Of a DNA stretch of 47,406 bases, positions 23,939-45,299 are shown piece after piece. The stretch is from positions 1 through 47,406 of the forward strand of contig CADCHO010000012.1 in the NCBI GenBank assembly GCA_902801255.1, given 5' to 3'. The position numbers and the translations under genes are program-made. Positions within the stretch are counted from its first letter, which is position 1. Each line of letters opens with the position of its first letter. The stretch comes from an uncultured Eubacteriales bacterium (GTDB lineage: Bacteria > Bacillota > Clostridia > Peptostreptococcales > Anaerovoracaceae). The notes beneath the pieces are model-generated. The model saw nothing but the letters and a program-made list of their open reading frames with translations. It had not been told where the DNA came from and searched no databases.

Positions 23939-24115
23939 ACGATACCTCGCTTCGACGGGGCTTCGTCGCCGGGAATGTCAGCTCGCTCGACTTTGCCGGT
24001 TGGAGAACAGCGCCTGACGCTTCGCTTGCGGCGGCCTGTTCTTAACCAACCGCCTGCAGCCTCGTCGCGACATTCCAAGCGGCGACTTCGCAGTCTCAGC
24101 TCAGTATCGTTTACA
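23934..24115. repeat. Nested hairpin element copy 1
   Basis: Outer 12-base perfect arms TGTAAACGATAC (23934-23945) and its complement (24104-24115); inside are GTCGCC/GGCGAC, GGAATGTC/GACATTCC and CGGTTGG/CCAACCG with AGAACAG/CTGTTCT. The core CTGACGCTTCGCTTGCG (24014-24030) is identical to one in the copy at 41894-41910, as is CGTCGCCGGGAAT in the left arm. The outer arm contains the stop codon of the preceding gene. Confidence 0.85.
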
Positions 24116-25422: not shown

Positions 25423-25424
25423 CA

Positions 25425-25641
25425 ATTTTTGCAATGTGCGGTGCAGAGAGCGGCCGTCTCGCCTCTCTCGGATCTGCCATTGCATCCTCACTCACTCCGC
25501 GTTCCGGGACGTTTGCGGAACTCGCTTCGCTCAGACACCCGCACAACGTCAGCCGGCCCGCGTTCACTCAATCGGTGCAGCTGGCAAGATCCTCGAGACA
25601 CGCTCGACTGCCGCTCTCTGCACCGCTCATATTACAAAAAT
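25425..25641. repeat. Nested hairpin element copy 2, bridging rho stop to next start
   Basis: The outer arms are about 30 bases long: 25425-25454 pairs with 25610-25641, including a perfect 16-base CGGTGCAGAGAGCGGC with its complement. Inner pairs are GTCTCG/CGAGAC, GGATC/GATCC with TGCCA/TGGCA, and GACGTT/AACGTC with TGCGG/CCGCA around a CTCGCTTCGCTC core. The left arm begins three bases after the rho stop codon and the right arm ends inside the ATG of the next gene. Confidence 0.85.
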
Positions 25642-30136: not shown

Positions 30137-30171
30137 TTTACAAAAGCGTTTAAATAAGAGAGGGAGTGAAT

Positions 30172-31311: not shown

Positions 31312-31317
31312 TATAAT

Positions 31318-31359
31318 AACAGCCTGAATGAGGACGTTCTCAGCAGGGCTGTTTTTTAA
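31318..31359 (+). terminator. Rho-independent terminator
   Basis: AACAGCC/GGCTGTT stem enclosing an inner TGAG/CTCA stem, followed by six T's, seven bases after the aldo/keto reductase stop. Confidence 0.75.
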
Positions 31360-31391
31360 ATTCAAAAATACAATTTGCACTTTATAAAATC

Positions 31392-31421
31392 TTGCCATTA
31401 ACCCCGTGCAGGGGTTAATAT
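31392..31421 (+). promoter_or_regulatory. Promoter with palindromic operator before the dehydratase operon
   Basis: TTGCCA (31392-31397) and TAATAT (31416-31421) are 18 bases apart. The spacer holds a palindrome AACCCC-GTGCA-GGGGTT (31400-31416). A palindrome inside a slightly long spacer is the layout of MerR-family activated promoters. The downstream leader contains GTGCCC/GGGCAC enclosing GAAAC/GTTTC, and GACCGG/CCGGTC at 31499-31511. Confidence 0.5.
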
Positions 31422-31556
31422 TTTATCGAGAGGGAAACTGAATCCGGCAAAATGGTGCCCTATGAAACGATCAGAAACAGCGTGTTTCCGGGGCACTCGA
31501 CCGGACCGGTCCTGAGAGGGATATTTTTTTATATTTAAAAACAAGAGGAGTTGTAT

Positions 31557-32759
31557 ATGAAAGACCTCAAGCATCTTTTGTATTTTGAAAACCTCCTGCA
31601 GAATGCGAACAACGAACTGATTGAACAGGCCAAGAAGGACGGCAAGATCTGCGCAGCGTTTACATGCGAGAATATACCGGAACCTTTGATGAATCTCGGC
31701 AATGCGTTCTCAGTTCGTCTTTTTGCGCCTAATTCCGGCTCGCTCGACATAGCTACGTATTATATGACGAGCTTCCTTTGCGAGACGAGCAGAGCCCTGC
31801 TGGAGAGAGCGATCGAGGGAGGCTTCAATTTCGCAGACTGCCTGATCGCGGCGGACGGCTGCACCATGATGAACCGTGCTGCTGAGAACATGGAGCTGCT
31901 GCACACCATGGATGAGGGGAAGGACAAATTCTTCTACCAGTTCATGGAGATCCCTATGAAGGCGAAAGAAAACGGAGTCGCGCTCCTGAAGCTGCAGAGC
32001 CAGAACCACATACTCAAGCCGCTGCATGAAAACTACGGAATCGACATTTCCGAAGAAGCCATGCTCAAGGCTGTCGAGGAGCATAACGAAGTCTGCAGAC
32101 TCATTCAGGAGATCGGTGAGTTCCGCAAGGAAGATGACCCGCGCATCACAGGATACGAGTTCCATGTGCTCACTCTCGCAACATATCTGGCTCCGAAGTA
32201 TCTGCTCATCGATAAGCTGAGAGAGACGCTCGAGGAGATCAAGACAAGAGAGCCTGACGGCAAGAAGTGGCGCGCACGCGTCCTGGTGGTCGGCTCCGAG
32301 ATCGACGACATCGGCATGATAAAGCTGATCGAGGAATGCGGCACTTACGTATGCGCTGACAGATTCTGTTTCGGCTCGCTTCCGGGAAGAGTACCGATCC
32401 CAATCGATAAGGATTCGGATGACGACATCCTCACGCAGATCTGCCGCCACTACACGATGATCGGACAGTGCCCGCGTACCATGAACATGGAGAAAGTATA
32501 CGGCCGCAAGAAATACGTTGCGGATCTCGCGAAGGAGTACAAGGCCGACGGCATCATTTACGAGCAGGTCAAGTTCTGTGACCCATGGGCATATGAGCGT
32601 ATGCTGGGATCGCACATGCTGAGAGAGGATTACGGATTCCCGGTACTCTCCGTAGACAGACCGTACAACATCAACGCCGGCGCCGGCCAGATGCGTACAC
32701 GTGTACAGGCTTTCATAGAAAGCATTGAGATAAAGAAGATTCAGGGAGGTGAGAAATAA
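31557..32759 (+). CDS. 2-hydroxyacyl-CoA dehydratase-like protein, subunit 1
   Basis: 400-residue HGD-D family protein (2-hydroxyglutaryl-CoA dehydratase / benzoyl-CoA reductase superfamily). Such subunits bind a [4Fe-4S] cluster and use single low-potential electrons to remove an alpha-hydroxyl or reduce an aromatic ring. Likely cluster cysteines are in the FLCETS (C75), AADGC (C102) and KFCDPW (C341) stretches. ATG 31557 has GAGGAG six bases upstream; a TTG two codons earlier is too close. It overlaps the next gene (TAATG), so the pair forms a heterodimer. No activator ATPase, CoA-transferase or CoA-ligase is beside it, so the substrate is open. Confidence 0.88.
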   Translation: MKDLKHLLYFENLLQNANNELIEQAKKDGKICAAFTCENIPEPLMNLGNAFSVRLFAPNSGSLDIATYYMTSFLCETSRALLERAIEGGFNFADCLIAADGCTMMNRAAENMELLHTMDEGKDKFFYQFMEIPMKAKENGVALLKLQSQNHILKPLHENYGIDISEEAMLKAVEEHNEVCRLIQEIGEFRKEDDPRITGYEFHVLTLATYLAPKYLLIDKLRETLEEIKTREPDGKKWRARVLVVGSEIDDIGMIKLIEECGTYVCADRFCFGSLPGRVPIPIDKDSDDDILTQICRHYTMIGQCPRTMNMEKVYGRKKYVADLAKEYKADGIIYEQVKFCDPWAYERMLGSHMLREDYGFPVLSVDRPYNINAGAGQMRTRVQAFIESIEIKKIQGGEK

Positions 32760-34363
32760 TGGCATTCAAAACGGTCAGGAAGATCACTAACCCTAAGAAG
32801 AAAAAAGGTGACCAGACGCTGGGCAAGCTCTATCCTACCAACGGCAAGACCAAGGTCTTCGTCCGCCGTGAATGGAGAGGTGTAAAGGACACACTCTACG
32901 ATTATTCGAGATGGCTGTACATCATGTCGATCCTCGCAAGATTCATCGCGAAGCCTCGTAACATCAAGGCGATGTTCCGTTACAGATGGATGGCCAACTA
33001 TCTGGCTGTTCCTTACATGATGGACAAGTTCACACTCGGACTCAGAGATGAGCCGCTGCGCATCACCCATACAGCCATGAACTTCGTAATTTACGACGTA
33101 GCCAAGACGATGGACAACATCTTCAAGGGCGACCGCCGTACGGGCAATAACAAGAAGTTCTCTGATACATGCGTGCTGACAGACGAGAATGCGATGACAG
33201 CATTCATGATGGGATTCCAGGATACAACAGCTATCCTCAGAGAGGTCCCTACAATGTTCGTCGCAAACCTGCTGACTCAGAACTCGACTACACATTATCT
33301 CGACGTTGCTCAGGAGTTCGGACTTCCGGGCGATGTCTGCCCGATGCCTGAAGCAGAGGCCGGCATCTCCATTGATGACGACTTCGCTGTACTCGGATGC
33401 TGCGCTGTTCAGGTCAACACCACCTGCGACGGTTCGCTCATGGGCAACGGTGTTATCGCACACAGACTCGAACGCGAATACGGTATCCCTACATTCCAGC
33501 TGACTGCCCCGCTCCGCCACAAGGAGGACGACGTTCAGGAATACGCTGCCAATGACATGAAGGAAGCTGTAAAGTTCATCGAAGAGCACGCTCATGAGAA
33601 GTGGAACTGGAAGCGCTATTTCGAGAGCGCTGCCAGAGTAAACGATGCAACCAGACACCGCGCGTTCTGGCTCGACAACAACTCAACTGACTATCCTCAG
33701 TTCGTAGGTTCGGTATTCTCCCTCTACAACGACACCAACTACATGGGTAACTGCGGAAGATCCGCTCTCTTCCCGCCAAAAGACAAGAAGATCAGCAAGC
33801 TCGTTGAGCAGGGTTACAAGAAAAAGACGATGATCTGCCCTGAGTACAGGCACAGATGTATCGTCTGGGGAGTACAGCCGCAGTACAACATTCATATGCT
33901 CTACTGGATGATGCATTGCTGGGGCGTTGTGCCGCTGACAGACATGCTTTCGATGGTCAACACCGACATGATCGCAGATGTGGATACTCCTGAGAACAGA
34001 GAGAAAGCATGGTACGACATGGCATGGCTCAACGAGAACATGATCATGCGTAACCGTACTCACGGCGGATACAAGGTGCTCGTCGATGAGCTCTGGGAGT
34101 TCTGCGAGATCATGAACGCCGACATGGTAATGATGTGGGAGCACATGAGCTGCAAGGCACTCGACGGCCTCCACGGAATGTTCGAGGAGCAGGGCCGCGA
34201 GAGAGGTATCCATGTTGTATGGGTATGCCACGACCTCTGCGATCCGAGAGTATACACAAGACAGGCTATCCGTGACGAATTCAGCCAGTACATGCGTACA
34301 GTGCTGCGCGAGGAGCCGCTTGATCCGACGATCGAACATATCCCGGATGAGAACATGTGGTAG
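32759..34363 (+). CDS. 2-hydroxyacyl-CoA dehydratase-like protein, subunit 2
   Basis: 534 residues, same superfamily as its partner but longer. A basic N-terminus (1-40) is followed by a helical region, then the HGD-D core with DVCPMPEAE (C194), LGCCAVQ (C214/C215), NTTCDGS (C223) and a later MSCKALDGLHG near residue 460. The cysteine pattern suggests a [4Fe-4S] site. AGGGAGGTG stands before the overlapping ATG. Like its partner it lacks an adjacent activator of the HgdC/BcrAD type; that ATPase may be beyond the right edge, where a paralogue of subunit 1 begins. Confidence 0.85.
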   Translation: MAFKTVRKITNPKKKKGDQTLGKLYPTNGKTKVFVRREWRGVKDTLYDYSRWLYIMSILARFIAKPRNIKAMFRYRWMANYLAVPYMMDKFTLGLRDEPLRITHTAMNFVIYDVAKTMDNIFKGDRRTGNNKKFSDTCVLTDENAMTAFMMGFQDTTAILREVPTMFVANLLTQNSTTHYLDVAQEFGLPGDVCPMPEAEAGISIDDDFAVLGCCAVQVNTTCDGSLMGNGVIAHRLEREYGIPTFQLTAPLRHKEDDVQEYAANDMKEAVKFIEEHAHEKWNWKRYFESAARVNDATRHRAFWLDNNSTDYPQFVGSVFSLYNDTNYMGNCGRSALFPPKDKKISKLVEQGYKKKTMICPEYRHRCIVWGVQPQYNIHMLYWMMHCWGVVPLTDMLSMVNTDMIADVDTPENREKAWYDMAWLNENMIMRNRTHGGYKVLVDELWEFCEIMNADMVMMWEHMSCKALDGLHGMFEEQGRERGIHVVWVCHDLCDPRVYTRQAIRDEFSQYMRTVLREEPLDPTIEHIPDENMW

Positions 34364-34944: not shown

Positions 34945-36318
34945 ATGGAAAGCAGTCTTTTGAAAAAGCGAATACCTTCGGAACCGGACCTGACGAGCGG
35001 CTCTATTGTCGATAAGGTCCTTCTTTTTGCCATTCCGCTCATGCTGACCAGCATGCTGCAGCAACTTTTCAATGCGACTGACGTTGCTGTTGTCGGTAAG
35101 TTTGCAAGCATGGAGGCGATGGCGGCGGTTGGAAGCAACACGCCGATCGTTTCGCTGCTGGTCAATTTCTTTGTGGGAATTTCGGTAGGATCAAACGTGC
35201 TGATCTCCCACAATATCGGAGCAAGAGAGCCGGAAAAGGCAAAGAGTGCTGTTAGGACCTCCATGGCGTTTGCTCTGGCGGCGGGTGTATTCGTTGCAGT
35301 GCTCGGCAATCTGATAGCGGTCCCGATCATAGATTTACTGGGAGTTCCGGCTGAGGTAAAAGATTACTCGGTCACCTATCTACGGATCTATTTCAGCGGC
35401 GTTCCGTTCATCATGCTCTATAACTTTGAAGCCGCCATTTTCAGGAGCGATGGCAACACGCGGACTCCGCTCATCTGTCTGACGGTCGGCGGTGTGTTCA
35501 ATGTGGCTGCGAACCTCTTTTTCGTTCTGGTTCTGGGAATGGACGTGGACGGCGTTGCCATAGCTACTGTGCTTGCGAACGTGATAAGCTCCATGATGCT
35601 GCTCTACTATCTCAGGAAGAAAGACAGTGTCATACATGTCAATGTGGCAAAGATCCGGATGAACAAGGACGATTTAAAAACCATCCTCAGGATCGGTATG
35701 CCGGCCGGACTGCAGAGCGCGGTCTTCTCTATCTCCAACATCTGCATCCAGTCCGCTATAAACAGCCTCGGCGCCGACTACATGGCCGCATCTTCCGCGG
35801 CGTTCAACATAGAAATATTCGCATTCTTTGTGGTAAACGCCTTTACGCAAACATTGGTGACCTTTGTCGGCCAAAACTACGGCGCCGGCAAGTACGACAG
35901 ATGCAGAGAGGTAATCCGGAAGACCCTTCTCGTGAGCTGGACCTTCACTATGGTGCTCTCTGTCCTGCTGCTCATTTTCGCCAGACCTTTGCTGGGACTT
36001 TTTACAAACGAGCCGCAGGTAATAGAGGCGGGCCTGCTGAGGATCAGGCTTCTCCTTTATGCCGAGACGCTCAACGTGCTGATGGACAATCTGTCCGGAG
36101 CCATGAGAGGTCTCGGAAAGTCGCTGGTCCCTGCTCTTACGACACTTATCTGTGTCTGCGGAGTTCGTATCATCTGGGTATTCACGGGATTTCAGATCTA
36201 CCACACATGGCTGTCGCTGATGATAGTTTTCCCGGTCAGCTGGGGAGTCAACGCATTATTCATCATCATCGGATATATCCACACCCGCAATCGCATGCTG
36301 CCGGCAGATAAACAGTGA
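34945..36318 (+). CDS. MATE-family efflux transporter
   Basis: 457 residues with about twelve membrane helices in two six-helix halves. The N-terminal LTSGSIVDKVLLFAIPLMLTSMLQQLFNATDVAVVG is typical of the DinF/NorM-like clade. Such carriers export drugs or metabolites using Na+ or H+. ATG 34945 has no ribosome site and lies nine bases after a likely -10 box. It is convergent with the acyl ligase at 36369 and shares a terminator with it. A link to the fatty-acid genes next door is possible but not shown. Confidence 0.9.
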   Translation: MESSLLKKRIPSEPDLTSGSIVDKVLLFAIPLMLTSMLQQLFNATDVAVVGKFASMEAMAAVGSNTPIVSLLVNFFVGISVGSNVLISHNIGAREPEKAKSAVRTSMAFALAAGVFVAVLGNLIAVPIIDLLGVPAEVKDYSVTYLRIYFSGVPFIMLYNFEAAIFRSDGNTRTPLICLTVGGVFNVAANLFFVLVLGMDVDGVAIATVLANVISSMMLLYYLRKKDSVIHVNVAKIRMNKDDLKTILRIGMPAGLQSAVFSISNICIQSAINSLGADYMAASSAAFNIEIFAFFVVNAFTQTLVTFVGQNYGAGKYDRCREVIRKTLLVSWTFTMVLSVLLLIFARPLLGLFTNEPQVIEAGLLRIRLLLYAETLNVLMDNLSGAMRGLGKSLVPALTTLICVCGVRIIWVFTGFQIYHTWLSLMIVFPVSWGVNALFIIIGYIHTRNRMLPADKQ

Positions 36319-36330
36319 AAAAGCAAAATG

Positions 36331-36358
36331 AAAAAGGCGCTCCACTGAGCGCCTTTCT
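36331..36358. terminator. Bidirectional terminator
   Basis: AAAGGCGCTC/GAGCGCCTTT with a CACT loop, A-run on the left and T's on the right, between the convergent MATE gene and acyl ligase 2. Confidence 0.88.
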
Positions 36359-36368
36359 ATGTGTGATC

Positions 36369-37727
36369 TTATTTATACAGTTCCTGAAGTTCGTATCTTT
36401 TTATCTTTCCGGTTACCGTGCGCGGAAGTGCATCTGACGTCATTATGATATCGCTTATCTGACGTGAATGCGGGATACTCTTGTTGAATCTGTCGACTTC
36501 TCTTACAAGCTTTTTCTTAATGTCGGCTGAAATAGCAGGATCTTTAGGGCATGTGCCGGCTACCAGCACGGCTTCTCCATCCTTCAGGATGACCCCCAGA
36601 TCAGGCAGGCCGCTCATCTGCTCAAGAGCCTCTTCATATTCAGGACAGAATATCTTATCTCCGTCGGAAAGCACCAGCACGTCGTTCTTGCGGCCTTTCA
36701 GGTGAAGTCTGCCCTTTTCGTCAAACCATCCGAGGTCGCCCGTAAAGAAGCGTCCTTTCTCAAACATAGGCTCTCTGCCCAGATAGCCCTGCATCATGCA
36801 AGGCGTTGCAACGGAGATCTCACCGTCTTCCTCTATACGAATGTCTGCTTCCGGGCACGGATACATGGCAGAAGGTTCGTCGAGATCCTGAGTTATCGCA
36901 ATACCGCTCGATGTTTCCGTAAGCCCATAGCCGAGATAGACCTGTATACCTTTTTCCCTTAGCGCGTCAACTACATGCTGAGGGCACGGAGCTCCGCCGA
37001 TCAGAACGACACGGAGCTCAGGATTCAGAGCGTCCTTATTGAGCATATCGGCGATCTGCGAAGGAACAGCAGGTAAAATGGTAGGCTTGAAAAACAGAGC
37101 ATCTCCGGTAAAACGGAGCACATCTCTGCCTAGAGCTACTGTTGCGCCATATGCGAGTCCCCACAGCATGGCGCATACGAATCCGTATGCGTGTGAAAGG
37201 GAGAGATTTGACAGGATCACATCGCCCTTGCCGCATGCGAGCATGCTCTGGCCGCTCCATGCGCTGGTGCACAGCGACTTGGATGTCAGCCTTGCTATTT
37301 TGGAACTGCTTGTGGTTCCGGATGTAAAGAAAAGGAGTTCTCCTTCTCCGCCCTTGCCTTTGATGCGCCCAAACTCGTCTCTCTGATTCTCTCGGAAATA
37401 CCTGGCGGCTTCCGCTGCCTCGGCGGCATACTCATTAAAACCCTCCGGAACACGTGGATCGGCGATAATGACATCGCAGCCGGCTAACACGTGAGCGAAG
37501 ATGTCTACGAGAGAGTCTACGGTCTGCTCATATCTGACGACCTCGACACTGCTGCATTCTGCCTTTACATGGAAGGATTCCGTGATTATCATCTCGCCAA
37601 AATCCCGGTAGGAGACTTCACTGGTCTCGCCCTCCATGTTGCCGCAGCGTATAGCGATGCTGTCACGTGTCAGGAAGTCGTTTACAAGCTCTTCGAAGGA
37701 TGAAAACTTTCTGTATATGCTATACAT
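36369..37727 (-). CDS. AMP-forming acyl ligase 2 (acyl-ACP/acyl-CoA synthetase family)
   Basis: 452-residue ANL-superfamily adenylating enzyme: P-loop FFTSGTTSSSK, YLGYGLTETSSG, TGDLGWFDEKGRLHLKGRKNDV and the C-terminal catalytic lysine region RTVTGKIKRYEL. The P-loop has Ser at positions where Gly and Pro are usual (TSGTTGxPK). It is a close paralogue of the ligase at 38936, and their upstream regions match in layout. A terminator at 37806-37840 separates it from the ACP/thioesterase unit, so it has its own promoter (-10 box 37775-37780). Likely role: activation of a carboxylic acid, plausibly a fatty acid, for transfer to CoA or to the nearby ACP. Confidence 0.85.
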   Translation of the reverse strand: MYSIYRKFSSFEELVNDFLTRDSIAIRCGNMEGETSEVSYRDFGEMIITESFHVKAECSSVEVVRYEQTVDSLVDIFAHVLAGCDVIIADPRVPEGFNEYAAEAAEAARYFRENQRDEFGRIKGKGGEGELLFFTSGTTSSSKIARLTSKSLCTSAWSGQSMLACGKGDVILSNLSLSHAYGFVCAMLWGLAYGATVALGRDVLRFTGDALFFKPTILPAVPSQIADMLNKDALNPELRVVLIGGAPCPQHVVDALREKGIQVYLGYGLTETSSGIAITQDLDEPSAMYPCPEADIRIEEDGEISVATPCMMQGYLGREPMFEKGRFFTGDLGWFDEKGRLHLKGRKNDVLVLSDGDKIFCPEYEEALEQMSGLPDLGVILKDGEAVLVAGTCPKDPAISADIKKKLVREVDRFNKSIPHSRQISDIIMTSDALPRTVTGKIKRYELQELYK

Positions 37728-37774
37728 AGTTGATACCCTTTTTATTCTGCTTTTGTTGAAATAGGCTTGCTATG

Positions 37775-37780
37775 ATTATA
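37775..37780 (-). promoter_or_regulatory. Candidate -10 box of acyl ligase 2
   Basis: TATAAT on the minus strand, 48 bases before the start. The block 37755-37780 (GTTGA, 14 bases, GATTATA on the plus strand) has the same layout and length as 40290-40315 before ligase 1. Confidence 0.5.
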
Positions 37781-37805
37781 AAACAATCACGATAAAGGCT
37801 CTATT

Positions 37806-37840
37806 AAAAAATGCCGTAAATAGCTGAATTACGGCATTTT
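37806..37840 (-). terminator. Terminator after the thioesterase gene
   Basis: AAAATGCCGTAA / TTACGGCATTTT with a nine-base loop; on the minus strand it ends in T's, 22 bases past the thioesterase stop. Confidence 0.88.
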
Positions 37841-37861
37841 ATGCAAATTGTCAACTCGATA

Positions 37862-38650
37862 TCAATATTCGTATCTGGCGCGGAAGAACGGCTTGTCGCC
37901 GGTGCCCTCATAGTAAGTGGTGTCGGCGTCTTTATATTCTTTCAGTGTCAGATGCATGCCCGCCTTTATCTCGTTTAAGTAGTTTATGTACACAACTTTC
38001 GGCACAGGCATGACCGCAGCCGCCTCAACCGTATCAGTTGCGGCATCTCCGGAGATACGGGATGACACATCGTTCCATATCGCATCATCGATCATGTTGA
38101 AATAGCTGGTGTTGTTCATGTGCCCGTTTATATCCATCTGGCTGAACCTGGTAACTATTTCAGTGCAGGATACAGGCTCACCGGCCGATTCCGGTATTAC
38201 GATGGCAGGCAGGAACATGTCATCGCTTCCCGGACGTCCCGGAAGCTCGATCCCGTAATCCTCGGGCATGATGATCTGACGTGTATCCTCATCTATCAGG
38301 GACCACAGGGCCTGCGCGCGGATTATCACCTTCCCCTCCTTTATGATCTCGTAAAATCGCGGGAAGAACACGTGCATCATTTCACCCTGCCAGCCGCGGA
38401 TGGTGATCTCATCATCGTAGACCGGCATCTCATCTATCTCGACCAGCTGCCTGGTAATTATCCAGAGAAGCCCTTTGTCGAGAGTCTCCCGGCGCGTGCA
38501 GCCAAGCGCCTCCGTGTGAGCTATTGAAATATCTTCGAGCAGACGGAAAAGCTCGGACATGCGAAGACGCCTCGTCATGTCTACCTGCTCGCTTCGGATC
38601 ACAATCGTCTTTACATATGTTAGTTCTTCGGGACGGTATTCTCTGTACAT
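37862..38650 (-). CDS. Acyl-ACP thioesterase
   Basis: 262 residues with the double hot-dog layout of FatA/FatB-type bacterial acyl-ACP thioesterases: first hot-dog with MTRRLRMSELFRLLEDISIAHTE, second with the catalytic motif DINGHMNNTSYFNMIDD (N175, H177, N180). It hydrolyses acyl-ACP to free fatty acid. It lies 15 bases after the ACP gene, so its substrate is probably carried on that ACP. Third gene of the ligase-ACP-thioesterase operon. Confidence 0.88.
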   Translation of the reverse strand: MYREYRPEELTYVKTIVIRSEQVDMTRRLRMSELFRLLEDISIAHTEALGCTRRETLDKGLLWIITRQLVEIDEMPVYDDEITIRGWQGEMMHVFFPRFYEIIKEGKVIIRAQALWSLIDEDTRQIIMPEDYGIELPGRPGSDDMFLPAIVIPESAGEPVSCTEIVTRFSQMDINGHMNNTSYFNMIDDAIWNDVSSRISGDAATDTVEAAAVMPVPKVVYINYLNEIKAGMHLTLKEYKDADTTYYEGTGDKPFFRARYEY

Positions 38651-38665
38651 GGCAGTGATGACGTC

Positions 38666-38914
38666 CTATCTGAGAGCCTCGATTTTGTCGAGCAGCTCGC
38701 CCAGCGTGTTGATCGATGTCCACTCCTTGCGCGGGATGCGGATGTTGAATGTGGACTCGACCTTTGTGATGAGCATGATGAGGCTCAGCGAGTCGATGTT
38801 TGTATCCGTGTTGATGATCGATGACTCATCAAGCTCAGCATTCTGAAGCTCAGGGATGAAGTTGTGAATGAGTTTGATGACCTTTTCTTTGATTTCGTCT
38901 CTTGTGAGTTCCAT
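38666..38914 (-). CDS. Acyl carrier protein
   Basis: 82 residues, acidic, four-helix ACP with the phosphopantetheine attachment motif IDSLSLI (Ser42). AAGGAG stands upstream of its ATG (minus strand). It is too diverged in the C-terminal half (FNIRIPRKEWTSINT) to be the housekeeping AcpP and is probably dedicated to this cluster, between ligase 1 and the thioesterase. Confidence 0.92.
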   Translation of the reverse strand: MELTRDEIKEKVIKLIHNFIPELQNAELDESSIINTDTNIDSLSLIMLITKVESTFNIRIPRKEWTSINTLGELLDKIEALR

Positions 38915-38935
38915 TGATTGATCTCCTTGAATTTT

Positions 38936-40273
38936 TTATTTGCTGATCTGCTCCTGCAGCTCGTATCTTTTGATCTTGCCTGTCGCCGTCCTCGGAAGCG
39001 AGTCTGCCCTTATTATAACATCATATATCTGCTGCGAGCGCTGCAGGGATCTGTTATACTCGCCGACAGTCTTCAGAAGCTTTGCTCTCATGTCTGCTTC
39101 TGTGGCCGGATCCTCCGAAAGAGAACCCGCGACAAGCACTGCATGGCCGTCCTTCATCGTTACTCCGAGGTCTGCAAGTCCTGTCAGATGCACAAGATCC
39201 TCTTCATACTCAGGACAGAAGATCTTTGTACCGTCCGCCATCAGGAGCACGTCCTTCTTGCGTCCCTTAAGATGGAGCCGGCCCTTATCATCGAACCAGC
39301 CGAGATCGCCTGTGAAAAACCTGTCTCCTTCGAACATAGGCTCGGCGCCGATGTAACCCTGCATCATGCAAGGAGTCGCGATCGTGACCTCGCCGTCTTC
39401 TTCGATGCGGAAGTCTGCACCCGGGCACGGATAGAGAGCTTCAGGCTCGTCAAGATCCTGAGTGATCGCGATTCCGCTTGAGGTCTCCGTAAGACCGTAT
39501 CCGAGATAGACCTTTATTCCCTTTGCTCTCAGCGCTGCCGTTACTTCAGGGGTGCAGGGAGCAGCACCGATAAGCGCGACTTTAAGACCCGGATTCAGAG
39601 TGTCGAATTTAAGCATCGCATTGATAAGCGTCGGAACTGCCGGCAGGATCGTCGGAGAAAAGAACAGCGCGTCATCGAGGAGATGTCTTACTCCCCTGCC
39701 GAGCGCTATCGTGGCGCCGTACGCGAGGCCCCACAGCATGGAGCATACGAAGCCGAACACGTGGGAAAGCGGCAGTATCGACAGTATCACGTCGCCTTCA
39801 CCGCATGCAAGCATGCTCTGGCCGCTCCATGCGCTGGTGCAGAACGACTGTGATGTGAGCCTTACGATCTTCGACCTGCTGGTGGTGCCGGATGTGAAGA
39901 AGAGAAGTTCACCCTCGCCCTTTTCGCCGGAGTCACTCATAGCCTCCCGTGCTGCCTTTGCGGCTTCGGCTGCCTCTGACGCTCTTGCAGTGATCTCTTC
40001 AGGGACCATCGGATCTGCAACGATGATGTCGCAGCCGGCCATGACATGAGAAAAGATGTTGACCAGAGTTGCCGGATCCTGTTCATCCCGGATCACTTCT
40101 ACGGCGCTGCGATCCGATTTCACATGAAGAGCCTCTTCCCTGATCATTTCAGCGAATTCACTGTAGGAAATGTCGCGGACTATGTCATCTTCTCCGGCAT
40201 AACGAATGGCCACTCCGTCACGTATGGACATGTCGTTTACTAATTCTTCAAATGATGAAAACTTTTTATACAT
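38936..40273 (-). CDS. AMP-forming acyl ligase 1 (acyl-ACP/acyl-CoA synthetase family)
   Basis: 445 residues, first gene of the minus-strand operon ligase-ACP-thioesterase. Motifs: P-loop FFTSGTTSRSK (125-135), YLGYGLTETSSG, TGDLGWFDDKGRLHLKGRKKDV and RTATGKIKRYEL. It is collinear with the ligase at 36369 over its whole length with very high similarity, so one arose by duplication. The P-loop shows the same unusual Ser substitutions. Adjacent to a dedicated ACP, it most simply acts as an acyl-ACP synthetase loading an exogenous acid. It is divergent from the isomerase gene at 40412. Confidence 0.86.
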   Translation of the reverse strand: MYKKFSSFEELVNDMSIRDGVAIRYAGEDDIVRDISYSEFAEMIREEALHVKSDRSAVEVIRDEQDPATLVNIFSHVMAGCDIIVADPMVPEEITARASEAAEAAKAAREAMSDSGEKGEGELLFFTSGTTSRSKIVRLTSQSFCTSAWSGQSMLACGEGDVILSILPLSHVFGFVCSMLWGLAYGATIALGRGVRHLLDDALFFSPTILPAVPTLINAMLKFDTLNPGLKVALIGAAPCTPEVTAALRAKGIKVYLGYGLTETSSGIAITQDLDEPEALYPCPGADFRIEEDGEVTIATPCMMQGYIGAEPMFEGDRFFTGDLGWFDDKGRLHLKGRKKDVLLMADGTKIFCPEYEEDLVHLTGLADLGVTMKDGHAVLVAGSLSEDPATEADMRAKLLKTVGEYNRSLQRSQQIYDVIIRADSLPRTATGKIKRYELQEQISK

Positions 40274-40411
40274 TGCGGGTTTCCTTTTCGTTGATAATAG
40301 TCCCTTGTGATTATATAATAATCCACGGAGTGTTCTCCATATAAAAACACCATTAATACTTGAACGAAACGGAGAACAAGTTCAGTTAACATTTAAGGAG
40401 GCAAATTCAAA
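40274..40411. promoter_or_regulatory. Divergent control region between the two fatty-acid operons
   Basis: 138 bases. On the minus strand TATAAT (40310-40315) is the -10 candidate of ligase 1. An inverted repeat TGTTCTCC (40331-40338) / GGAGAACA (40371-40378) spans the middle, and GAACAAGTTC (40374-40383) overlaps its right arm. AAGGAGG precedes the plus-strand gene. A shared regulator binding here is plausible. The plus-strand promoter is not clear. Confidence 0.5.
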
Positions 40412-41797
40412 ATGGACAAGAACACCAAGATCTGCATCGTAGGCGGAGGCCCTGCAGGACTCTCTGCAGGAATGTATCTCGAGCAGAAGGGCTACGAGAA
40501 CTACACGATCCTCGAAAGACTTGACCGCGTAGGCGGAAAGTGCTGGTCGCCGACATACAACGGCAGACGTTATGAGATGGGCGCTATCATGGGCGTTCCT
40601 TCATACTATGCTGTTCACGATGTAGAGGAATTCTGCGGTATCACTCATGACGGTCCTAAGCTGAACCGCAACTACAAGAACAAGAACGGAAAGGTTATCG
40701 AGCCGTTCGAACCTAAGAAGAACATCCTCAAGATTCCTAGACTTCTCAAGATGAAGAAGCAGCTCAAGGAGTTCGGTGAGCTCCTCGAGACAAAGTACTA
40801 TGGCTATGACATCAACGGACACCGTGGTGTTGCTGAGGGACGTTATGAAGGCTTTGCATGCACACCGGAGCGTGAGCCTGTAAGCGGAACAAACCCTAAC
40901 CTCAAGGATCTTGCACTTCCATTCAATGAATTCTGCAAGAAGAATAAAGTAGAGCTCGTTCAGGATGTGTGGATCGGACCTTACACATCATTCGGTTACG
41001 GCTACTTTGATGAGATCCCTGCAGGATACGTCCTCAAGTACCTCGACTTCCAGACGACAATGAACTTTGTAAAGGTCAACCTCTGGACATGGAAAGAGGG
41101 AACACAGTGGATCTGGGAGTGCCTCGATGCCAAGCTGAAGCACCCTGCAAGACTCAACAGCAAGATCGACAAGGTTGAGCGTAAAGACGGCAAGGTATAC
41201 GTAACAGTAAACGGCAAGGTCGAAGAGTATGACAAGATCATCGTTACAGCACCTCTGTACATCCCTAACAAGAGAGCTGACGGACAGGTAGGCATGGTAG
41301 ACTACTTCGACGCAAGAGACGACGAGAAGGAACTCTTCAGCAAGATCGATTACGAAAGATACGATGTACAGGCAGTTCTCACAAAGCCTGAGGATCACCC
41401 TGAGATCAGCTACTATGTATTCGAGAACATGGTAAAAGAGAGACTCGGACACCTGATGGTCTACTACAGAAGATGGAGAGACGAGATCGATCAGGTCATC
41501 ACAACTTATGCTCTGCGTAAGCACAAAAATGGTCCTGAGATCCCTTATGAAGAGGTAAGAGCTACAGTGCAGGAAGACCTCAAGACAATGGGCAACCCTG
41601 CAAAGGAAGTTATCAACGAGTGGTCAGTTTACTACTTCCCACATGTCTTCAGCGAAGACTATGCTGCAGGCTGGTATGACAAGGTCGAAGCAATGCAGGG
41701 CAAGTACGACACATACTATGCAGGCGAAGTCATGGCGTTCGGCGACATGGACGAGACTGCAGAGTACAGCCGTGAGCTCGTAGAGAGATTCTTCTAA
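40412..41797 (+). CDS. Polyunsaturated fatty acid isomerase-like flavoprotein
   Basis: 461 residues. It strongly resembles, from memory, the Propionibacterium acnes isomerase PAI, an FAD enzyme that turns linoleic acid into trans-10,cis-12 conjugated linoleic acid. Shared stretches run along the whole protein: GxGxxG at 11-16 followed by GMYLEQ, YTILER, VGGKC, GRRYEMGAIMGVPSY; the middle YVLKYLDF and LWTW..GTQ; and at the C-terminus MVYY.RW, ITTY, YYFPHV.SEDY, AGWY.KVE.MQG and YAGE. A roughly 35-residue insertion near 130-165 (KYYGYDINGHRGVAEGRYEG and following) is longer than in PAI. The substrate is inferred. AAGGAGG ribosome site. First gene of the plus-strand operon. Confidence 0.85.
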   Translation: MDKNTKICIVGGGPAGLSAGMYLEQKGYENYTILERLDRVGGKCWSPTYNGRRYEMGAIMGVPSYYAVHDVEEFCGITHDGPKLNRNYKNKNGKVIEPFEPKKNILKIPRLLKMKKQLKEFGELLETKYYGYDINGHRGVAEGRYEGFACTPEREPVSGTNPNLKDLALPFNEFCKKNKVELVQDVWIGPYTSFGYGYFDEIPAGYVLKYLDFQTTMNFVKVNLWTWKEGTQWIWECLDAKLKHPARLNSKIDKVERKDGKVYVTVNGKVEEYDKIIVTAPLYIPNKRADGQVGMVDYFDARDDEKELFSKIDYERYDVQAVLTKPEDHPEISYYVFENMVKERLGHLMVYYRRWRDEIDQVITTYALRKHKNGPEIPYEEVRATVQEDLKTMGNPAKEVINEWSVYYFPHVFSEDYAAGWYDKVEAMQGKYDTYYAGEVMAFGDMDETAEYSRELVERFF

Positions 41798-41814
41798 ATC
41801 ATCATTAAATAAGG

Positions 41815-41995
41815 GCGGATACAAGAACTTCAGCTCGCTGGTTCCGTCGCCGGGAATATCTGCTTCGTCGGCCTTGCTTCTTGGGGAACGGCTCTGACGC
41901 TTCGCTTGCGAGACTCGTTCCAGCCAATCAGCTGCGGCCTTCTCGCGATATTCCGGACGGCTTCTCCACACGCTCGCTTCGGTTCTTGTATCCGC
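41815..41995. repeat. Nested hairpin element copy 3
   Basis: Outer 14-base perfect arms GCGGATACAAGAAC (41815-41828) and its complement (41982-41995). Inside, CCGTC with GGGAATATC pairs with GATATTCC and GACGG, then TTGG/CCAA and GGAACG/CGTTCC. Core CTGACGCTTCGCTTGCG at 41894-41910. Fills the gap between the isomerase stop and the ribosome site of the next gene. Confidence 0.85.
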
Positions 41996-42016
41996 TCTTA
42001 CCACAAGGAGAATGTT

Positions 42017-43594
42017 ATGAAATTTTATAAAGATCACTATGATGTCGTGATCATCGGAGGAGCCCTTGCGGGGCTTTCCGCTGCCCTTCAGCTTCAGCAG
42101 AAAGGCATCAACGACATCCTTATCCTGGAGAAGCACAATCTTCCTGGCGGCCTGGCCACGAGCTATGTCCGTAACGGTATTGAGATCGAAGCGACTCTCC
42201 ACGAGATGATGAGCATCGGCTCAAAGGAAGACCGTCTCAAGGTCGGCGTGTTCTTTGACGAGTGCGGAGTCGACATCGACTGGCTCAAAGTTCCTGAAGC
42301 ATACAGATTCGTTGAGCCTAACAAGGGTATCGACATCACGCTGCACTCGGGTTTCGAGAGGATGGCTAACGAGATCGACGCGCAGTATCCTGGCTGGGGA
42401 CCAAAGGTGCTTGAGTTCATGCAGCTCTGCAACAGAGTATATGATTCGATGAACACCCTTTCGGTGACTCCGATGAGCAAACCTGCAATGCTCATAAAGC
42501 ATCCGGATTTCGTGAAAACAGCGGGATACACCGCGACTGAAGTCATAGATACGTTCGGATTCCCGCAGGATATCGTGGACATTCTGACACCGTACTGGAT
42601 CTACGTCGGAAACCCGATGAGCACTCTGCCTTTCACTATCTACGCCTTCCTGATGGCAGACTACTTCCGCGGCGGAAGCTATGTGCCTAAGAAATACTCG
42701 CATGAGATGAGCATGAAGCTTATGGCAAAGGCCGAGGAGAACGGCGCTCAGATCGAGTTCTGCCAGGAAGTCGAAAAGATCCTCGTGAAGGACGGCAAGG
42801 TCACGGGCGTGCGCACAAAGCGCGGTGACGAGATCAACTGTGATTACGTGATTTCGGCTGCCTACCCTAACAAGGTGTACACACAGATGATAGAGCCTCT
42901 GTCGGAAGTCCCGGCAGGAGCCATCAAGATGGTAAACGGCCGCAGGCTGTCAGTCACAACAGCATCCGTAATGATGGTGCTCGACGACACTCCTGAGAAC
43001 CTCGGCATCAAGGATTACAATATCTTCTCGGCAGGCGAGACGATGGATACGGATAAGATCTGGGAACAGAGCAAGACGCTGGGACCATACAAGTATCTGA
43101 CATCGATCTGCCTTGATCTGGCGAATCCGGGTGCTACGCCTGAGGGAATGTGTCAGTTCTCTATCACCAACCTGCCGCTCGTGCAGGGGTTCCTCGATCT
43201 GAAAGAGGAAGACTATTACGATTTCAAGCGCAAAATGGCGCTCGACATGATCACTGAGTACGAGAGAGTCAGCGGGATCAACCTGCGCGACCACATCGTC
43301 GAGATCGAAGTCTCGACACCTGTCACTATTGCCCACTATGTAGGCGCGTGGAAAGGAAGCATTTACGGTTACTCGCACAGCATAGACGACCACGCGGTGG
43401 CACGTCTCCAGATGAAGGAAGATGATCATTTCATAGACGGACTTGAATTCGCGGGAGCCCATGCCATCAGCGGAAACGGCATGGGCCCGGCCGTTACAAA
43501 CGGCCGCGCCGCCGCCAAGGCTGTCATTGACGATGTTGCAAAGAAGAAGGCTGCCTCCGAAGGCGGCCCGAAAAAGAAAGCAAAGAAAGCTTAG
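42017..43594 (+). CDS. Phytoene desaturase / retinol saturase-like FAD oxidoreductase
   Basis: 525 residues. N-terminal FAD motif VVIIGGALAGLSAALQLQQKG (GxGxxG-like GGALAG at 14-19, with Ala in the middle), the family's GGLATSYVRNG-type second motif and a C-terminal FAGAHAISGNGMGPAVTNGRAAA that closes the FAD site. This clade includes carotenoid desaturases and retinol saturase, which reduces a conjugated C=C bond. A Lys-rich tail ends the protein. ATG 42017 has AAGGAG six bases before; the longer ORF from 41906 runs through the hairpin and is rejected. Placed between the isomerase and the reductase, it is the best candidate for a conjugated-diene reductase. Confidence 0.82.
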   Translation: MKFYKDHYDVVIIGGALAGLSAALQLQQKGINDILILEKHNLPGGLATSYVRNGIEIEATLHEMMSIGSKEDRLKVGVFFDECGVDIDWLKVPEAYRFVEPNKGIDITLHSGFERMANEIDAQYPGWGPKVLEFMQLCNRVYDSMNTLSVTPMSKPAMLIKHPDFVKTAGYTATEVIDTFGFPQDIVDILTPYWIYVGNPMSTLPFTIYAFLMADYFRGGSYVPKKYSHEMSMKLMAKAEENGAQIEFCQEVEKILVKDGKVTGVRTKRGDEINCDYVISAAYPNKVYTQMIEPLSEVPAGAIKMVNGRRLSVTTASVMMVLDDTPENLGIKDYNIFSAGETMDTDKIWEQSKTLGPYKYLTSICLDLANPGATPEGMCQFSITNLPLVQGFLDLKEEDYYDFKRKMALDMITEYERVSGINLRDHIVEIEVSTPVTIAHYVGAWKGSIYGYSHSIDDHAVARLQMKEDDHFIDGLEFAGAHAISGNGMGPAVTNGRAAAKAVIDDVAKKKAASEGGPKKKAKKA

Positions 43595-43609
43595 AAAGGA
43601 GGCAGCCAC

Positions 43610-44791
43610 ATGAAAGTAAAAGGATTTTTAAAAGATGTCGGCGGCGCCTCCCGCGTCACCAAAATGCGCAAAGAGCTGATTGCAAAAGGATCTCCTCTTC
43701 CTGATCCGAAGGATCCTATCCGCGAACTCGCTGACCTGCTCCACCCGGGCAAGCAGCAGTTCAAAGTCACCGAGATCCGTGAAGCGTCACCTACGGCTAC
43801 TACTTACAGGTTCTCGCCTTTGAACGGTCACGTTCCTGTATTCCAGAGCGGTCAGTATGTAAACTTCTACCTGACCGTTGGCGACAGCGTGCTCACAAGA
43901 GCATACTCGATCTCATCGGCACCTTATGAGGCAAGGCTTGCAGAGCCTTTCTTCGAAGTAACGATCAGACACAACGTACACTACCTCGTTCCGGACTGGT
44001 TCCTCGAGAACGTAAAGGTCGGCACGGAGATCACAGCCGCCCTTCCGTTCGGACAGTTTCTCTACGAGCCGCTCCGCGACTCCGATCATATCGTAGGCAT
44101 CGCAGGCGGATCGGGCATCACACCTTTCGCTTCGATGGCCAAGGAGATCGCACACGGCAAGCTCGATATCGATCTTACGATCATCTACGGTTCTGTCAAA
44201 CATACAGACATCGTCTGCGGTGAGGAGCTCGAAGCTGCCCGCAAAGCGGCTCCTGATAAGATCCACGTGGTACATGTCATGAGCGATGACGAAGACTGGG
44301 ATGGAGAGAAAGGCTTCGTAACGGAAGAGATCATCAGAAAGTATTCGCCTGAGGGCTGCTCGTACTTTTTCTGCGGACCTCCGGTGATGTTCTTCCTGAT
44401 CGATAAGATCATGAAGGAGATGGGCGTTCCACTGAAGAGATTCAGACATGATGCGACAGCCCAGCCGGCTGTAAAGATGATTCCGGGATTCCCGATGGAT
44501 CAGGTCGGCAAGACTTACAAGATCACCGTAATGCGCGGCATTCATGAGGATGTGATCGATGCAGCAGCAGACGAACCGGTGGCGGTCGCTCTCGAAAGGG
44601 CAGCGATCCCTATCGATACCCACTGCAGAGGCGGCGAGTGCGGATACTGCCGTACCCAGCTTCTTTCAGGAGACATTTTCGTATCGCCGCTCAATGACGG
44701 CAGAAGAGCAATGGACAAGGAGCTCGGCTGGTTCCACGCCTGCTCCGCGTACCCGACTTCAGACCTGAAGATCAAGATCCCTATCATCTAA
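43610..44791 (+). CDS. NAD(P)H-dependent flavoprotein reductase with C-terminal [2Fe-2S] domain
   Basis: 393 residues: a short N-terminal extension (1-45), an FAD-binding reductase domain with RAYSISSAP (97-105), an NAD(P) domain with GIAGGSGITPF (163-172) and YFFCGPPVMFF, and a plant-type ferredoxin domain with CRGGECGYC (C339, C344, C347) and C378. The order reductase-then-ferredoxin matches flavohaemoglobin-reductase/oxygenase-reductase-type proteins (PDR/BenC-like families) that pass electrons from NAD(P)H to a partner. AAAGGAGG ribosome site; 15 bases after the phytoene-desaturase-like gene, its likely partner. A terminator follows at 44849. Confidence 0.9.
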   Translation: MKVKGFLKDVGGASRVTKMRKELIAKGSPLPDPKDPIRELADLLHPGKQQFKVTEIREASPTATTYRFSPLNGHVPVFQSGQYVNFYLTVGDSVLTRAYSISSAPYEARLAEPFFEVTIRHNVHYLVPDWFLENVKVGTEITAALPFGQFLYEPLRDSDHIVGIAGGSGITPFASMAKEIAHGKLDIDLTIIYGSVKHTDIVCGEELEAARKAAPDKIHVVHVMSDDEDWDGEKGFVTEEIIRKYSPEGCSYFFCGPPVMFFLIDKIMKEMGVPLKRFRHDATAQPAVKMIPGFPMDQVGKTYKITVMRGIHEDVIDAAADEPVAVALERAAIPIDTHCRGGECGYCRTQLLSGDIFVSPLNDGRRAMDKELGWFHACSAYPTSDLKIKIPII

Positions 44792-44848
44792 ACAGGATGA
44801 GTCCGGCCGAATCCGGAAGAACCGGACACGGTCACTTAAAAATCAATG

Positions 44849-44876
44849 AAGCTCCGGCAACCCCGCCGGAGCTTTT
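44849..44876 (+). terminator. Terminator of the isomerase-reductase operon
   Basis: AAGCTCCGGC / GCCGGAGCTT stem with a six-base loop and TTTT. A second GTCCGG/CCGGAC hairpin lies just before it (44801-44827). Confidence 0.88.
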
Positions 44877-45002: not shown

Positions 45003-45299
45003 ATGAACAGAAATCTTATAGCGGCTGTGGCGTACTTTACATGGATCGGCTTCCTTGCTGCATATATGCTGGGCGACAAGAACGACCCGTTCATCAGGCA
45101 CCATCTTAATCAGGCGCTGGTTATCGACCTTGCGGGTTTAATAGGAGGCGTATTTGCGGTCATACCGATTCTCGGCGCTCTGGTAGCCGGAGTGGTAAAC
45201 ATCGCAGGCTTTGTGCTGGATATCATGGGAGCGGTAAGCGCATACCAGGGAAGCACAGCATCGCTTCCGATTATCGGTGACATCCATATTATCGGCTGA
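45003..45299 (+). CDS. Small Tic20/DUF4870-like membrane protein
   Basis: 98 residues with three or four hydrophobic segments and a polar FIRHHLNQALVIDL motif after the first, typical of small DUF4870/YtxG-like membrane proteins. Function unknown. GGAAGGAG ribosome site before ATG. Confidence 0.6.
   Translation: MNRNLIAAVAYFTWIGFLAAYMLGDKNDPFIRHHLNQALVIDLAGLIGGVFAVIPILGALVAGVVNIAGFVLDIMGAVSAYQGSTASLPIIGDIHIIG

What the first reader, a model, noticed from the sequence alone, without database searches (positions are those of the whole stretch)
36369..44791. Candidate fatty-acid capture, isomerisation and reduction cluster
Two divergent units combine two acyl ligases, a dedicated ACP, an acyl-ACP thioesterase, a PAI-like fatty acid isomerase, a retinol-saturase/phytoene-desaturase-like flavoprotein and an NAD(P)H-[2Fe-2S] reductase. 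Family knowledge suggests a logic: load or release acyl groups, convert a methylene-interrupted diene to a conjugated diene, then saturate one double bond with NAD(P)H electrons. That would be a genetically linked biohydrogenation route. The chain of substrates is inference; I do not know of a described cluster with this composition.
Basis: partly seen in the sequence, partly recalled or inferred. Interest (0 to 1): 0.9.

Follow-up and report, generated by a model that had tools for sequence, protein, structure and literature searches.

The report
Rumen fatty-acid isomerase-and-reductase gene cluster
A conserved set of linked genes in many uncultured ruminant-gut bacteria looks like a complete kit for re-arranging and then saturating dietary linoleic acid, and may be the missing genetic basis of the rumen route whose trans-10 product lowers milk fat in cows.

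Summary
Two divergent units (36369-40273 minus; 40412-44791 plus) encode ligase-ACP-thioesterase-ligase and isomerase-flavoprotein-reductase. The isomerase matches C. acnes PAI (E 1.8e-135). In the 80 closest named relatives (84-99%), 68 of 68 with enough downstream sequence have the flavoprotein and reductase, 58 of 60 the ligase-ACP-thioesterase trio, 49 of 51 everything; 65 of 80 carry ruminant-gut titles or RUG names. The isomerase stays 86% identical at nearly saturated synonymous sites. C. acnes PAI groups, not firmly, with an isomerase in a full cluster. Phytoene synthase is absent from 14 of 14 genomes. Best reading: linoleate -> conjugated diene (probably trans-10,cis-12) -> monoene, electrons NAD(P)H -> 2Fe-2S reductase -> CrtI-like flavoprotein; the acyl trio's role is inferred. 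Corrections: the second ligase is a local duplicate; a ~940-aa Fe-S flavoprotein is a frequent seventh gene; the reductase pair also occurs without the isomerase. Rumen PAI homologues were reported before (PMC10019597); no paper listed in my searches describes the cluster. Substrates and regiospecificity are untested.

The parts
36331..36358 (-). terminator-like hairpin ending the minus-strand unit
   Evidence: 12-pair stem, (consensus match only)
36369..37727 (-). second acyl ligase (LIG2), 452 aa, lineage-specific duplicate of LIG1
   Evidence: PF00501 6.7e-33; 66% identical to LIG1; close second copy otherwise seen only in L048
37862..38650 (-). acyl-ACP thioesterase, 262 aa
   Evidence: PF01643 75 bits over cut-off 23.7; all 7 solved-structure hits at E<=0.01 are acyl-ACP thioesterases
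38666..38914 (-). acyl carrier protein, 82 aa, serine motif DSL
   Evidence: PF00550 22.1 bits, cut-off 20.8; DS-hydrophobic motif in 72 of 72 ACPs extracted
38936..40273 (-). acyl ligase (LIG1), 445 aa
   Evidence: PF00501 1e-34; motifs TSGTT 68, YG.TE-type 69, TGD 62, GK 65, GR-type 27 of 69 ligases extracted
40274..40411 (.). divergent promoter region
   Evidence: facing sigma-70-like promoters, 11/12 and 10/12 matches
40412..41797 (+). PAI-type polyunsaturated fatty acid isomerase, 461 aa
   Evidence: E 1.8e-135 to 2b9w, 48% identity; only full-length match in own genome
41798..42016 (.). palindromic (REP/MITE-like) insert between isomerase and flavoprotein, not a general part of the cluster
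   Evidence: fold z -5.4; one other 74% copy in the genome
42017..43594 (+). CrtI/retinol-saturase-like FAD protein (CRT), candidate conjugated-diene reductase, 525 aa
   Evidence: crtI_fam 4e-31, carot_isom 2.7e-27, both below cut-off; start checked; N-terminal glycine-motif pattern in 58 of 80 extracted
43610..44791 (+). NAD(P)H-dependent [2Fe-2S] flavin reductase (FER), candidate electron donor of CRT, 393 aa
   Evidence: PF00970, PF00175, PF00111; C4C2C motif in 75 of 75, GGSG-P-type pattern in 24 of 75; identity pattern follows CRT, Spearman 0.86
44848..44875 (+). terminator-like hairpin ending the plus-strand unit
   Evidence: 11-pair GC-rich stem, (consensus match only)

Best explanation
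A self-contained fatty-acid biohydrogenation cluster of ruminant-gut bacteria. PAI converts linoleic acid (and probably alpha-linolenic acid) to a conjugated diene, most likely trans-10,cis-12, by internal hydride transfer on its FAD. The CrtI/RetSat-like flavoprotein then reduces one double bond of the conjugated diene, with electrons passing from NAD(P)H through the [2Fe-2S] reductase, giving a trans monoene (trans-10 18:1 if PAI is trans-10 specific). The ligase-ACP-thioesterase unit activates free fatty acid onto the dedicated ACP and releases it again, holding substrate or product in a soluble, less toxic form. Shown: gene content, conserved linkage, strong purifying selection on PAI, and pairwise co-variation CRT-FER and ligase-thioesterase. 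Inferred: substrates, regiospecificity, direction of electron flow, and the role of the acyl trio.
For: PAI homology by sequence, with the residues aligned to PAI Arg88, Phe168 and Phe193 (numbers recalled as active-site residues; no call gives them) kept in 83, 84 and 84 of 84 sequences. C. acnes PAI groups with L148 (63% identity, support 93/82), whose isomerase lies in a complete cluster. Linkage 68/68, 58/60, 49/51. CRT beside FER in 16 of 16 CRT stretches fetched from the class-wide search, 14 without PAI, and CRT-FER identity correlation 0.86 against 0.22-0.54 across blocks: an NAD(P)H-driven flavoprotein. Ligase-thioesterase 0.80. Four-fold sites nearly saturated against the window (0.28 seen, 0.23 random, 80 pairs) at 86% protein identity. 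65 of 80 loci carry ruminant-gut titles or RUG names. Phytoene/squalene synthase in 0 of 14 and oleate hydratase in 1 of 14 genomes.
Against: No enzyme here has been assayed. PAI is only 48% identical to the characterised enzyme, so cis-9,trans-11 product is possible. The C. acnes + L148 join is below the tree's own mark for firm support (95/80) and C. acnes is a long branch. CRT-FER occurs without PAI, and 6 of the 14 CRT-bearing genomes of the family draw have only 28-34% CRTs not tied to a close PAI, so its substrate need not be a PAI product. CRT also resembles carotenoid isomerase, a redox-neutral enzyme. Five genomes of the family draw with 54-58% PAI have no CRT >=47%. The acyl trio is missing from 2 of 60 named loci and from the 19.9-kb stretch L176. 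Butyrivibrio, the standard trans-11 organism, could not be tested by name.
Confidence: 0.66

Rival explanations
1. Same pathway class but the trans-11 route: the isomerase makes cis-9,trans-11 CLA and the flavoprotein gives vaccenic acid, i.e. this is simply the genetics of the main rumen biohydrogenation.
For: Trans-11 is the usual rumen route (PMC7339423, passages); PAI identity to C. acnes is only 48%; the cluster is widespread in ruminant-gut genomes.
Against: C. acnes PAI groups, though not firmly, with a cluster-linked isomerase. PMC6249431 (passages) reports no linoleate isomerase gene in Butyrivibrio genomes (an annotation-based statement). Only 12 of 299 genomes drawn from the Lachnospiraceae-titled family have a PAI of 54% or more. 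[quoted passage not shown]
Confidence: 0.2
2. The flavoprotein is not a reductase but a redox-neutral cis/trans isomerase kept reduced by the [2Fe-2S] reductase, as in carotenoid isomerase; the cluster makes trans fatty acids for the membrane or for detoxification without saturation.
For: carot_isom is the second-best NCBIfam model (95.8 bits); an NAD(P)H reductase would also serve a reduced-flavin isomerase.
Against: Both scores lie far below cut-offs; an NAD(P)H supply gene beside it in 68 of 68 loci suits steady electron use better than occasional flavin reduction (inference).
Confidence: 0.12
3. The cluster builds or modifies another lipid or polyketide-like acid on its ACP (a secondary metabolite), and PAI acts on that ACP-bound chain.
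For: Dedicated ACP, ligase and thioesterase in 58 of 60.
Against: No chain-building enzyme among the window's own neighbours scanned against Pfam; neighbours in the other loci were not annotated. C. acnes PAI works on free linoleic acid (PMC2885616, passages). The most conserved partner by far is the isomerase.
Confidence: 0.1
4. Carotenoid or retinoid metabolism.
For: CrtI-type flavoprotein.
Against: 0 of 14 genomes have a phytoene/squalene synthase while 7 of 14 control genomes ring; PAI and acyl genes have no known place there (recalled).
Confidence: 0.02

Closest known systems
[quoted passage not shown]
   Same: Full-length homology, 48% identity, conserved FAD region; [quoted passage not shown]
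   Different: Studied as a lone enzyme in the passages read. PMC7339423 (passages) reports C. acnes monoculture accumulating trans-10,cis-12 CLA and B. fibrisolvens reducing it, while PMC2885616 cites about 10% trans-10 octadecenoic acid from C. acnes. The gene neighbourhood in C. acnes was not checked here.
PAI-type genes found by BLAST in rumen MAGs (PMC10019597)
   Different: The passages read describe isomerase genes only; the word reductase does not occur in the main text and no gene cluster is described in those passages. Two of the three MAGs correlated with trans-10,cis-12 carry the other isomerase type LAI.
Butyrivibrio fibrisolvens CLA reductase (Fukuda 2007; Hughes 1982, both seen only as citations)
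   Same: Reduces conjugated dienes to trans monoene (PMC2654759, passages); the activity proposed here for CRT-FER
   Different: Its sequence is not held here, so kinship could not be tested
Lactiplantibacillus plantarum CLA-HY/DH/DC/ER system
   Same: Converts and saturates linoleate through several enzymes (PMC13365329, passages)
   Different: Works by hydration to hydroxy and oxo acids; its MCRA hydratase is missing from 13 of 14 genomes tested
CrtI / carotenoid isomerase / retinol saturase flavoprotein superfamily
   Same: Family of CRT by weak profile matches
   Different: Scores below every NCBIfam cut-off shown; retinol saturase kinship is recalled, not tested
NfnA/GltD-type Fe-S flavoproteins
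   Same: Central part of the frequent seventh gene (E 3.4e-81 to NfnA)
   Different: Extra N-terminal part of about 340 aa and C-terminal Fe-S region; role beside PAI unknown

Membership tests
PAI polyunsaturated fatty acid isomerases | full-length homology with FAD-binding region | tested here: met
   phmmer 1.8e-135, residues 2-138 and 165-461 aligned
PAI polyunsaturated fatty acid isomerases | residues equivalent to Arg88, Phe168, Phe193 (role recalled) | tested here: met
   window has all three; 83, 84 and 84 of 84 sequences
PAI polyunsaturated fatty acid isomerases | linoleate to trans-10,cis-12 CLA activity | not testable with these tools
   needs enzyme assay
CrtI phytoene desaturase family (TIGR02734) / carotenoid isomerase (TIGR02730) | score over curated cut-off | tested here: not met
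   108.2 of 238.1 and 95.8 of 586.9 bits
carotenoid pathway | phytoene/squalene synthase in the genome | tested here: not met
   0 of 14 genomes with CRT; window genome 78.5% complete
acyl-ACP thioesterase | Pfam PF01643 over gathering score | tested here: met
   75 bits over 23.7; D.N.H.NN-type motif (recalled) in 46 of 56 extracted
acyl-ACP synthetase | transfers acyl group to ACP rather than CoA | not testable with these tools
   AMP-binding family only; closest solved structures are 2-succinylbenzoate-CoA ligases
L. plantarum hydratase route | MCRA fatty acid hydratase | tested here: not met
   1 of 14 genomes, not the window's
Butyrivibrio CLA reductase | sequence homology to the Fukuda 2007 gene | not tested

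The most novel reading that the evidence does not exclude
This cluster is the missing genetic basis of the ruminal trans-10 pathway (trans-10 shift, milk fat depression): one genome carries both linoleate -> trans-10,cis-12 CLA and its reduction to trans-10 18:1, and it is spread over uncultured Bacillota, Coriobacteria and possibly spirochaetes of the ruminant gut rather than resting on rare C. acnes.
Probability: 0.48. Interest if true: 0.93.

Novelty: new variant of a known kind. Interest (0 to 1): 0.8.

Why it matters
Papers read say the rumen bacteria that form trans-10 intermediates are not unambiguously identified (PMC7339423, passages) and that no rumen laboratory strain was available before C. 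acnes AP1 (PMC11770317, part 1 of 4 of the text read), although trans-10,cis-12 CLA causes costly milk fat depression. PMC9853040 (passages) lists taxa that rise with the trans-10 shift: one OTU of the [Eubacterium] coprostanoligenes group, a Muribaculaceae OTU, Lachnospiraceae NK3A20, Olsenella (formerly Coriobacteriaceae) and, in its table, the [Eubacterium] nodatum group under Anaerovoracaceae. Loci with this cluster bear Mogibacterium (Anaerovoracaceae), Lachnospiraceae, Oscillospiraceae and Coriobacteriaceae titles. The overlap is at family level only and not uniform: in the same table Anaerovoracaceae as a whole does not change (p 0.344) and Oscillospiraceae tends to fall (p 0.074). If the novel case is right, a gene marker and a candidate target for controlling milk fat follow at once, and candidate genes for a conjugated-diene reductase become testable.

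Tried and rejected
Carotenoid reading: dropped. Hydratase (MCRA) route: dropped. Recent transfer as the general cause of the high isomerase identity: dropped, because synonymous sites are nearly saturated against the window; over all pairs the excess over random (0.47 against 0.39) is like that of the other genes, and single transfers, for instance to the spirochaete-titled loci, are not excluded. Plasmid carriage: the flavoprotein has no match, the isomerase two hits at 26-29% in plasmid records. First neighbour clustering by greedy ORF choice picked antisense ORFs (it recovered 42 of 80 isomerases); its counts are not used, only the lead to the ~940-aa gene, recounted by tblastn. Structure prediction of CRT never ran: the machine was busy at each of seven tries. 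Test of Butyrivibrio by name: three accessions recalled for plasmids or chromids are not held, and a Butyrivibrio phage record (L186) proved useless as a host marker; given up. Rows dropped: loci with too short a flank were left out of linkage counts (of 80: 68 kept downstream, 60 upstream, 51 both, 58 for the seventh gene); 45 of the 80 loci were given; one search kept the best 80 of 388 confirmed relatives, so lower-identity relatives are under-represented; the tree used 48 rows; sequence counts used only ORFs covering 85% of the query (84 isomerases, 80 CRT, 75 FER, 72 ACP, 69 ligases, 56 thioesterases, 38 of the large flavoprotein).
Full report
What is there. The window is contig C12 of a 2.24-Mb, 78.5% complete genome. 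Its nearest named relatives by the isomerase are MAGs titled uncultured Clostridiales RUG12610 and RUG12387 and Mogibacterium sp. from goat ileum. Between a MATE-type transporter gene (34945-36318) and a DUF4870 gene (45003-45299) lie seven genes in two divergent units. Minus strand, read outward: ligase 1, ACP, acyl-ACP thioesterase, ligase 2. Plus strand: PAI-type isomerase, CrtI-type flavoprotein (CRT here, start at 42017), NAD(P)H [2Fe-2S] reductase (FER). Facing sigma-70-like promoters fill the 138-bp gap and terminator-like hairpins follow both last genes.

Identity of the parts. The isomerase is the clear anchor: phmmer to the solved C. acnes PAI gives E 1.8e-135, the next match 1.1e-9. 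CRT has only distant solved relatives (4rep, gamma-carotene desaturase, E 1.5e-17 with a profile of 25 sequences) and misses all NCBIfam cut-offs shown. FER is a BenC-like reductase with a C-terminal ferredoxin. The thioesterase's 7 solved-structure matches are all acyl-ACP thioesterases. The ligases are AMP-binding enzymes of unsettled acceptor.

Conservation of the cluster. A scan of named genomes confirmed 388 relatives of the isomerase and kept the best 80, all 84-99% identical. By tblastn, CRT and FER follow on the same strand in 68 of 68 loci with at least 3 kb downstream; ligase, ACP and thioesterase lie divergently upstream in 58 of 60 with at least 3.5 kb upstream (not found in L069 and L071); all in 49 of 51 with both. 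Median identity to the window: isomerase 86, CRT 62, FER 51, ACP 42, ligase 39, thioesterase 37. By my count of titles, 31 name a ruminant host and gut site (RGIG), 1 red deer, 33 bear RUG names (rumen origin of that name recalled), 15 give no host. Titles include Actinomycetota (L057, L111, L126, G+C 0.61-0.65) and Spirochaetota (L093, L123, G+C 0.46); MAG titles can be wrong. Among more distant carriers the trio can be collinear instead of divergent (L037, L175, L179) or missing (L176).

Co-occurrence. In 299 genomes drawn from the family of a Lachnospiraceae-titled carrier, 12 have PAI at E 1e-20 or better and 14 have CRT at 1e-40. The 7 with PAI >=66% all have CRT >=52%, beside the isomerase (L063, L175-L179, L185); G787 alone has CRT >=47% without PAI (Fisher 2e-13). 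The other 6 CRT carriers are at 28-34%. The 5 with PAI at 54-58% have no CRT >=47% (G946 has a 34% one on another contig). In the order draw of 297 genomes, the 5 with PAI >=68% over most of its length (window included; in L036 the isomerase gene is in two pieces) have CRT and FER next door; G295 (58%) does not, and G286 has only a 52-residue PAI match (71%) with no cluster in the 16 kb fetched. L148 is an exception to the identity pattern: its PAI is only 54% identical to the window's yet lies in a complete cluster. Class-wide, CRT was found in 16 of 391 genomes and PAI in 5 of 382.

How it evolves. Against the window, four-fold synonymous sites of the isomerase agree at 0.28 (random 0.23; 80 pairs) while 86% of amino acids are kept; over all pairs the excess over random is alike for isomerase, CRT, FER, ligase and thioesterase (0.07-0.09), while protein identity runs from 0.86 down to 0.47. 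So the isomerase's likeness is old and held by selection. Pairwise identities co-vary most within CRT-FER (0.86, n 74) and ligase-thioesterase (0.80, n 54), less across (0.22-0.54); none of 500 permutations reached any of these (kinship of genomes alone raises such values). This suggests two working pairs joined through the isomerase. CRT stands beside FER in 16 of 16 CRT stretches fetched from the class-wide search, 14 of them without PAI in the stretch, including a second pair in the window's own genome (contig C9). This is the best sign that CRT receives electrons from NAD(P)H.

A link to the known trans-10 enzyme. In a tree of 48 isomerases, C. acnes PAI groups (93/82) with L148, 63% identical, from another clostridial family, whose isomerase sits in a complete cluster. 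The join has a long branch and is not firm, and the 54-58% PAIs without CRT branch between this pair and the window's group. G336, same genus as L148, has CRT, FER and the large flavoprotein but only the last 94 isomerase residues: a natural loss.

A seventh gene. A ~940-aa Fe-S flavoprotein with an NfnA/GltD-like core follows the isomerase unit in 33 of 58 loci with enough sequence and lies on either side in 39 of 58. It is also within about 5.5 kb of 8 of 8 fetched distant PAI relatives (26-30%) of the same order (weaker hits were not fetched), and beside 4 of 6 PAIs that lack a CRT neighbour (L038, L181, L182, L184; not found with L183, nor in the cut stretch L180). It is not next to the cluster in the window or in L034, L036 and L037; a 44% relative is elsewhere in the window's genome. 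It may be an alternative electron supplier (inference).

Proposed working. Linoleate enters; PAI shifts a double bond to give a conjugated diene; CRT reduces one bond using NAD(P)H through FER; ligase and thioesterase load and unload ACP with substrate or product. Likely uses are detoxification of linoleate (PMC2654759, abstract passage: biohydrogenation as defence against toxic fatty acids in B. fibrisolvens) and an electron sink. Only the gene facts are shown; the chemistry is inferred from family.

What is known. Nine paper searches of the held library (listings only, several capped) listed no paper on this cluster. [quoted passage not shown] PMC6249431 (passages) reports no linoleate isomerase gene in Butyrivibrio. 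PMC4478896 (passages) could not verify the fatty-acid oxidoreductase gene. PMC7339423 (passages) found only C. acnes among 28 species to make trans-10 intermediates, calls its relevance questionable because of low abundance, and shows B. fibrisolvens can reduce trans-10,cis-12 CLA, so a separate reducer is also possible in vivo. PMC1413795, the PAI structure paper, was not held.

Verdict. Observation confirmed and much strengthened; interpretation plausible, with its core (PAI plus reductase) well supported by genomics and its substrates untested. Interest is high because it makes the open question of who makes trans-10 fatty acids in the rumen directly testable.

Noticed in passing
window 41798-42016 and 23964-24076: About 200-bp palindromic element (arms GCGGATACAAGAAC, RNA fold z -5.4) between isomerase and flavoprotein; one 74% copy elsewhere in the genome; relative L049 has only a 21-bp gap there. 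REP/MITE-like; could be polar on CRT-FER in this strain.
   Followed up: partly
L056:14176-16998 and L035, L038, L040-L047, L147: ~900-970-aa Fe-S/NfnA-like flavoprotein near close and distant PAI genes; in L038, L040, L041, L045, L046 and L147 genes that look like HypB and in some HypA lie next to it (names recalled from sequence). A nickel-chaperone link to fatty-acid metabolism is unexplained.
   Followed up: partly
L040:6665-7732, L041:10906-11973, L045:7249-8274, L046:7740-8801: A ~350-aa protein that looks like an IS-type helix-turn-helix protein directly abuts or overlaps the start of the distant PAI gene in 4 of 4 loci viewed; perhaps a domesticated regulator.
   Followed up: no
window 30166-34363: Aldo/keto reductase with 4Fe-4S followed by two HGD-D (double-cubane/2-hydroxyacyl-CoA dehydratase-type) proteins; conserved next to the cluster in L048 and L049, with a second pair of such proteins in L034/L049.
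   Followed up: no
window 25355-27823: One 822-aa frame joins a DUF1385 protein to a PrmC-type methyltransferase; a fusion or a missed boundary.
   Followed up: no
L147 (G336 C1): Single-contig genome with CRT, FER, a TetR-like gene (by eye) and the large flavoprotein but only the last 94 residues of the isomerase: a natural loss that could serve as a comparison strain.
   Followed up: partly
L036:8755-10181 and L048:11458-13018: Isomerase in two ORFs in L036 and flavoprotein in two ORFs in L048; sequencing error or decay cannot be told apart.
   Followed up: no
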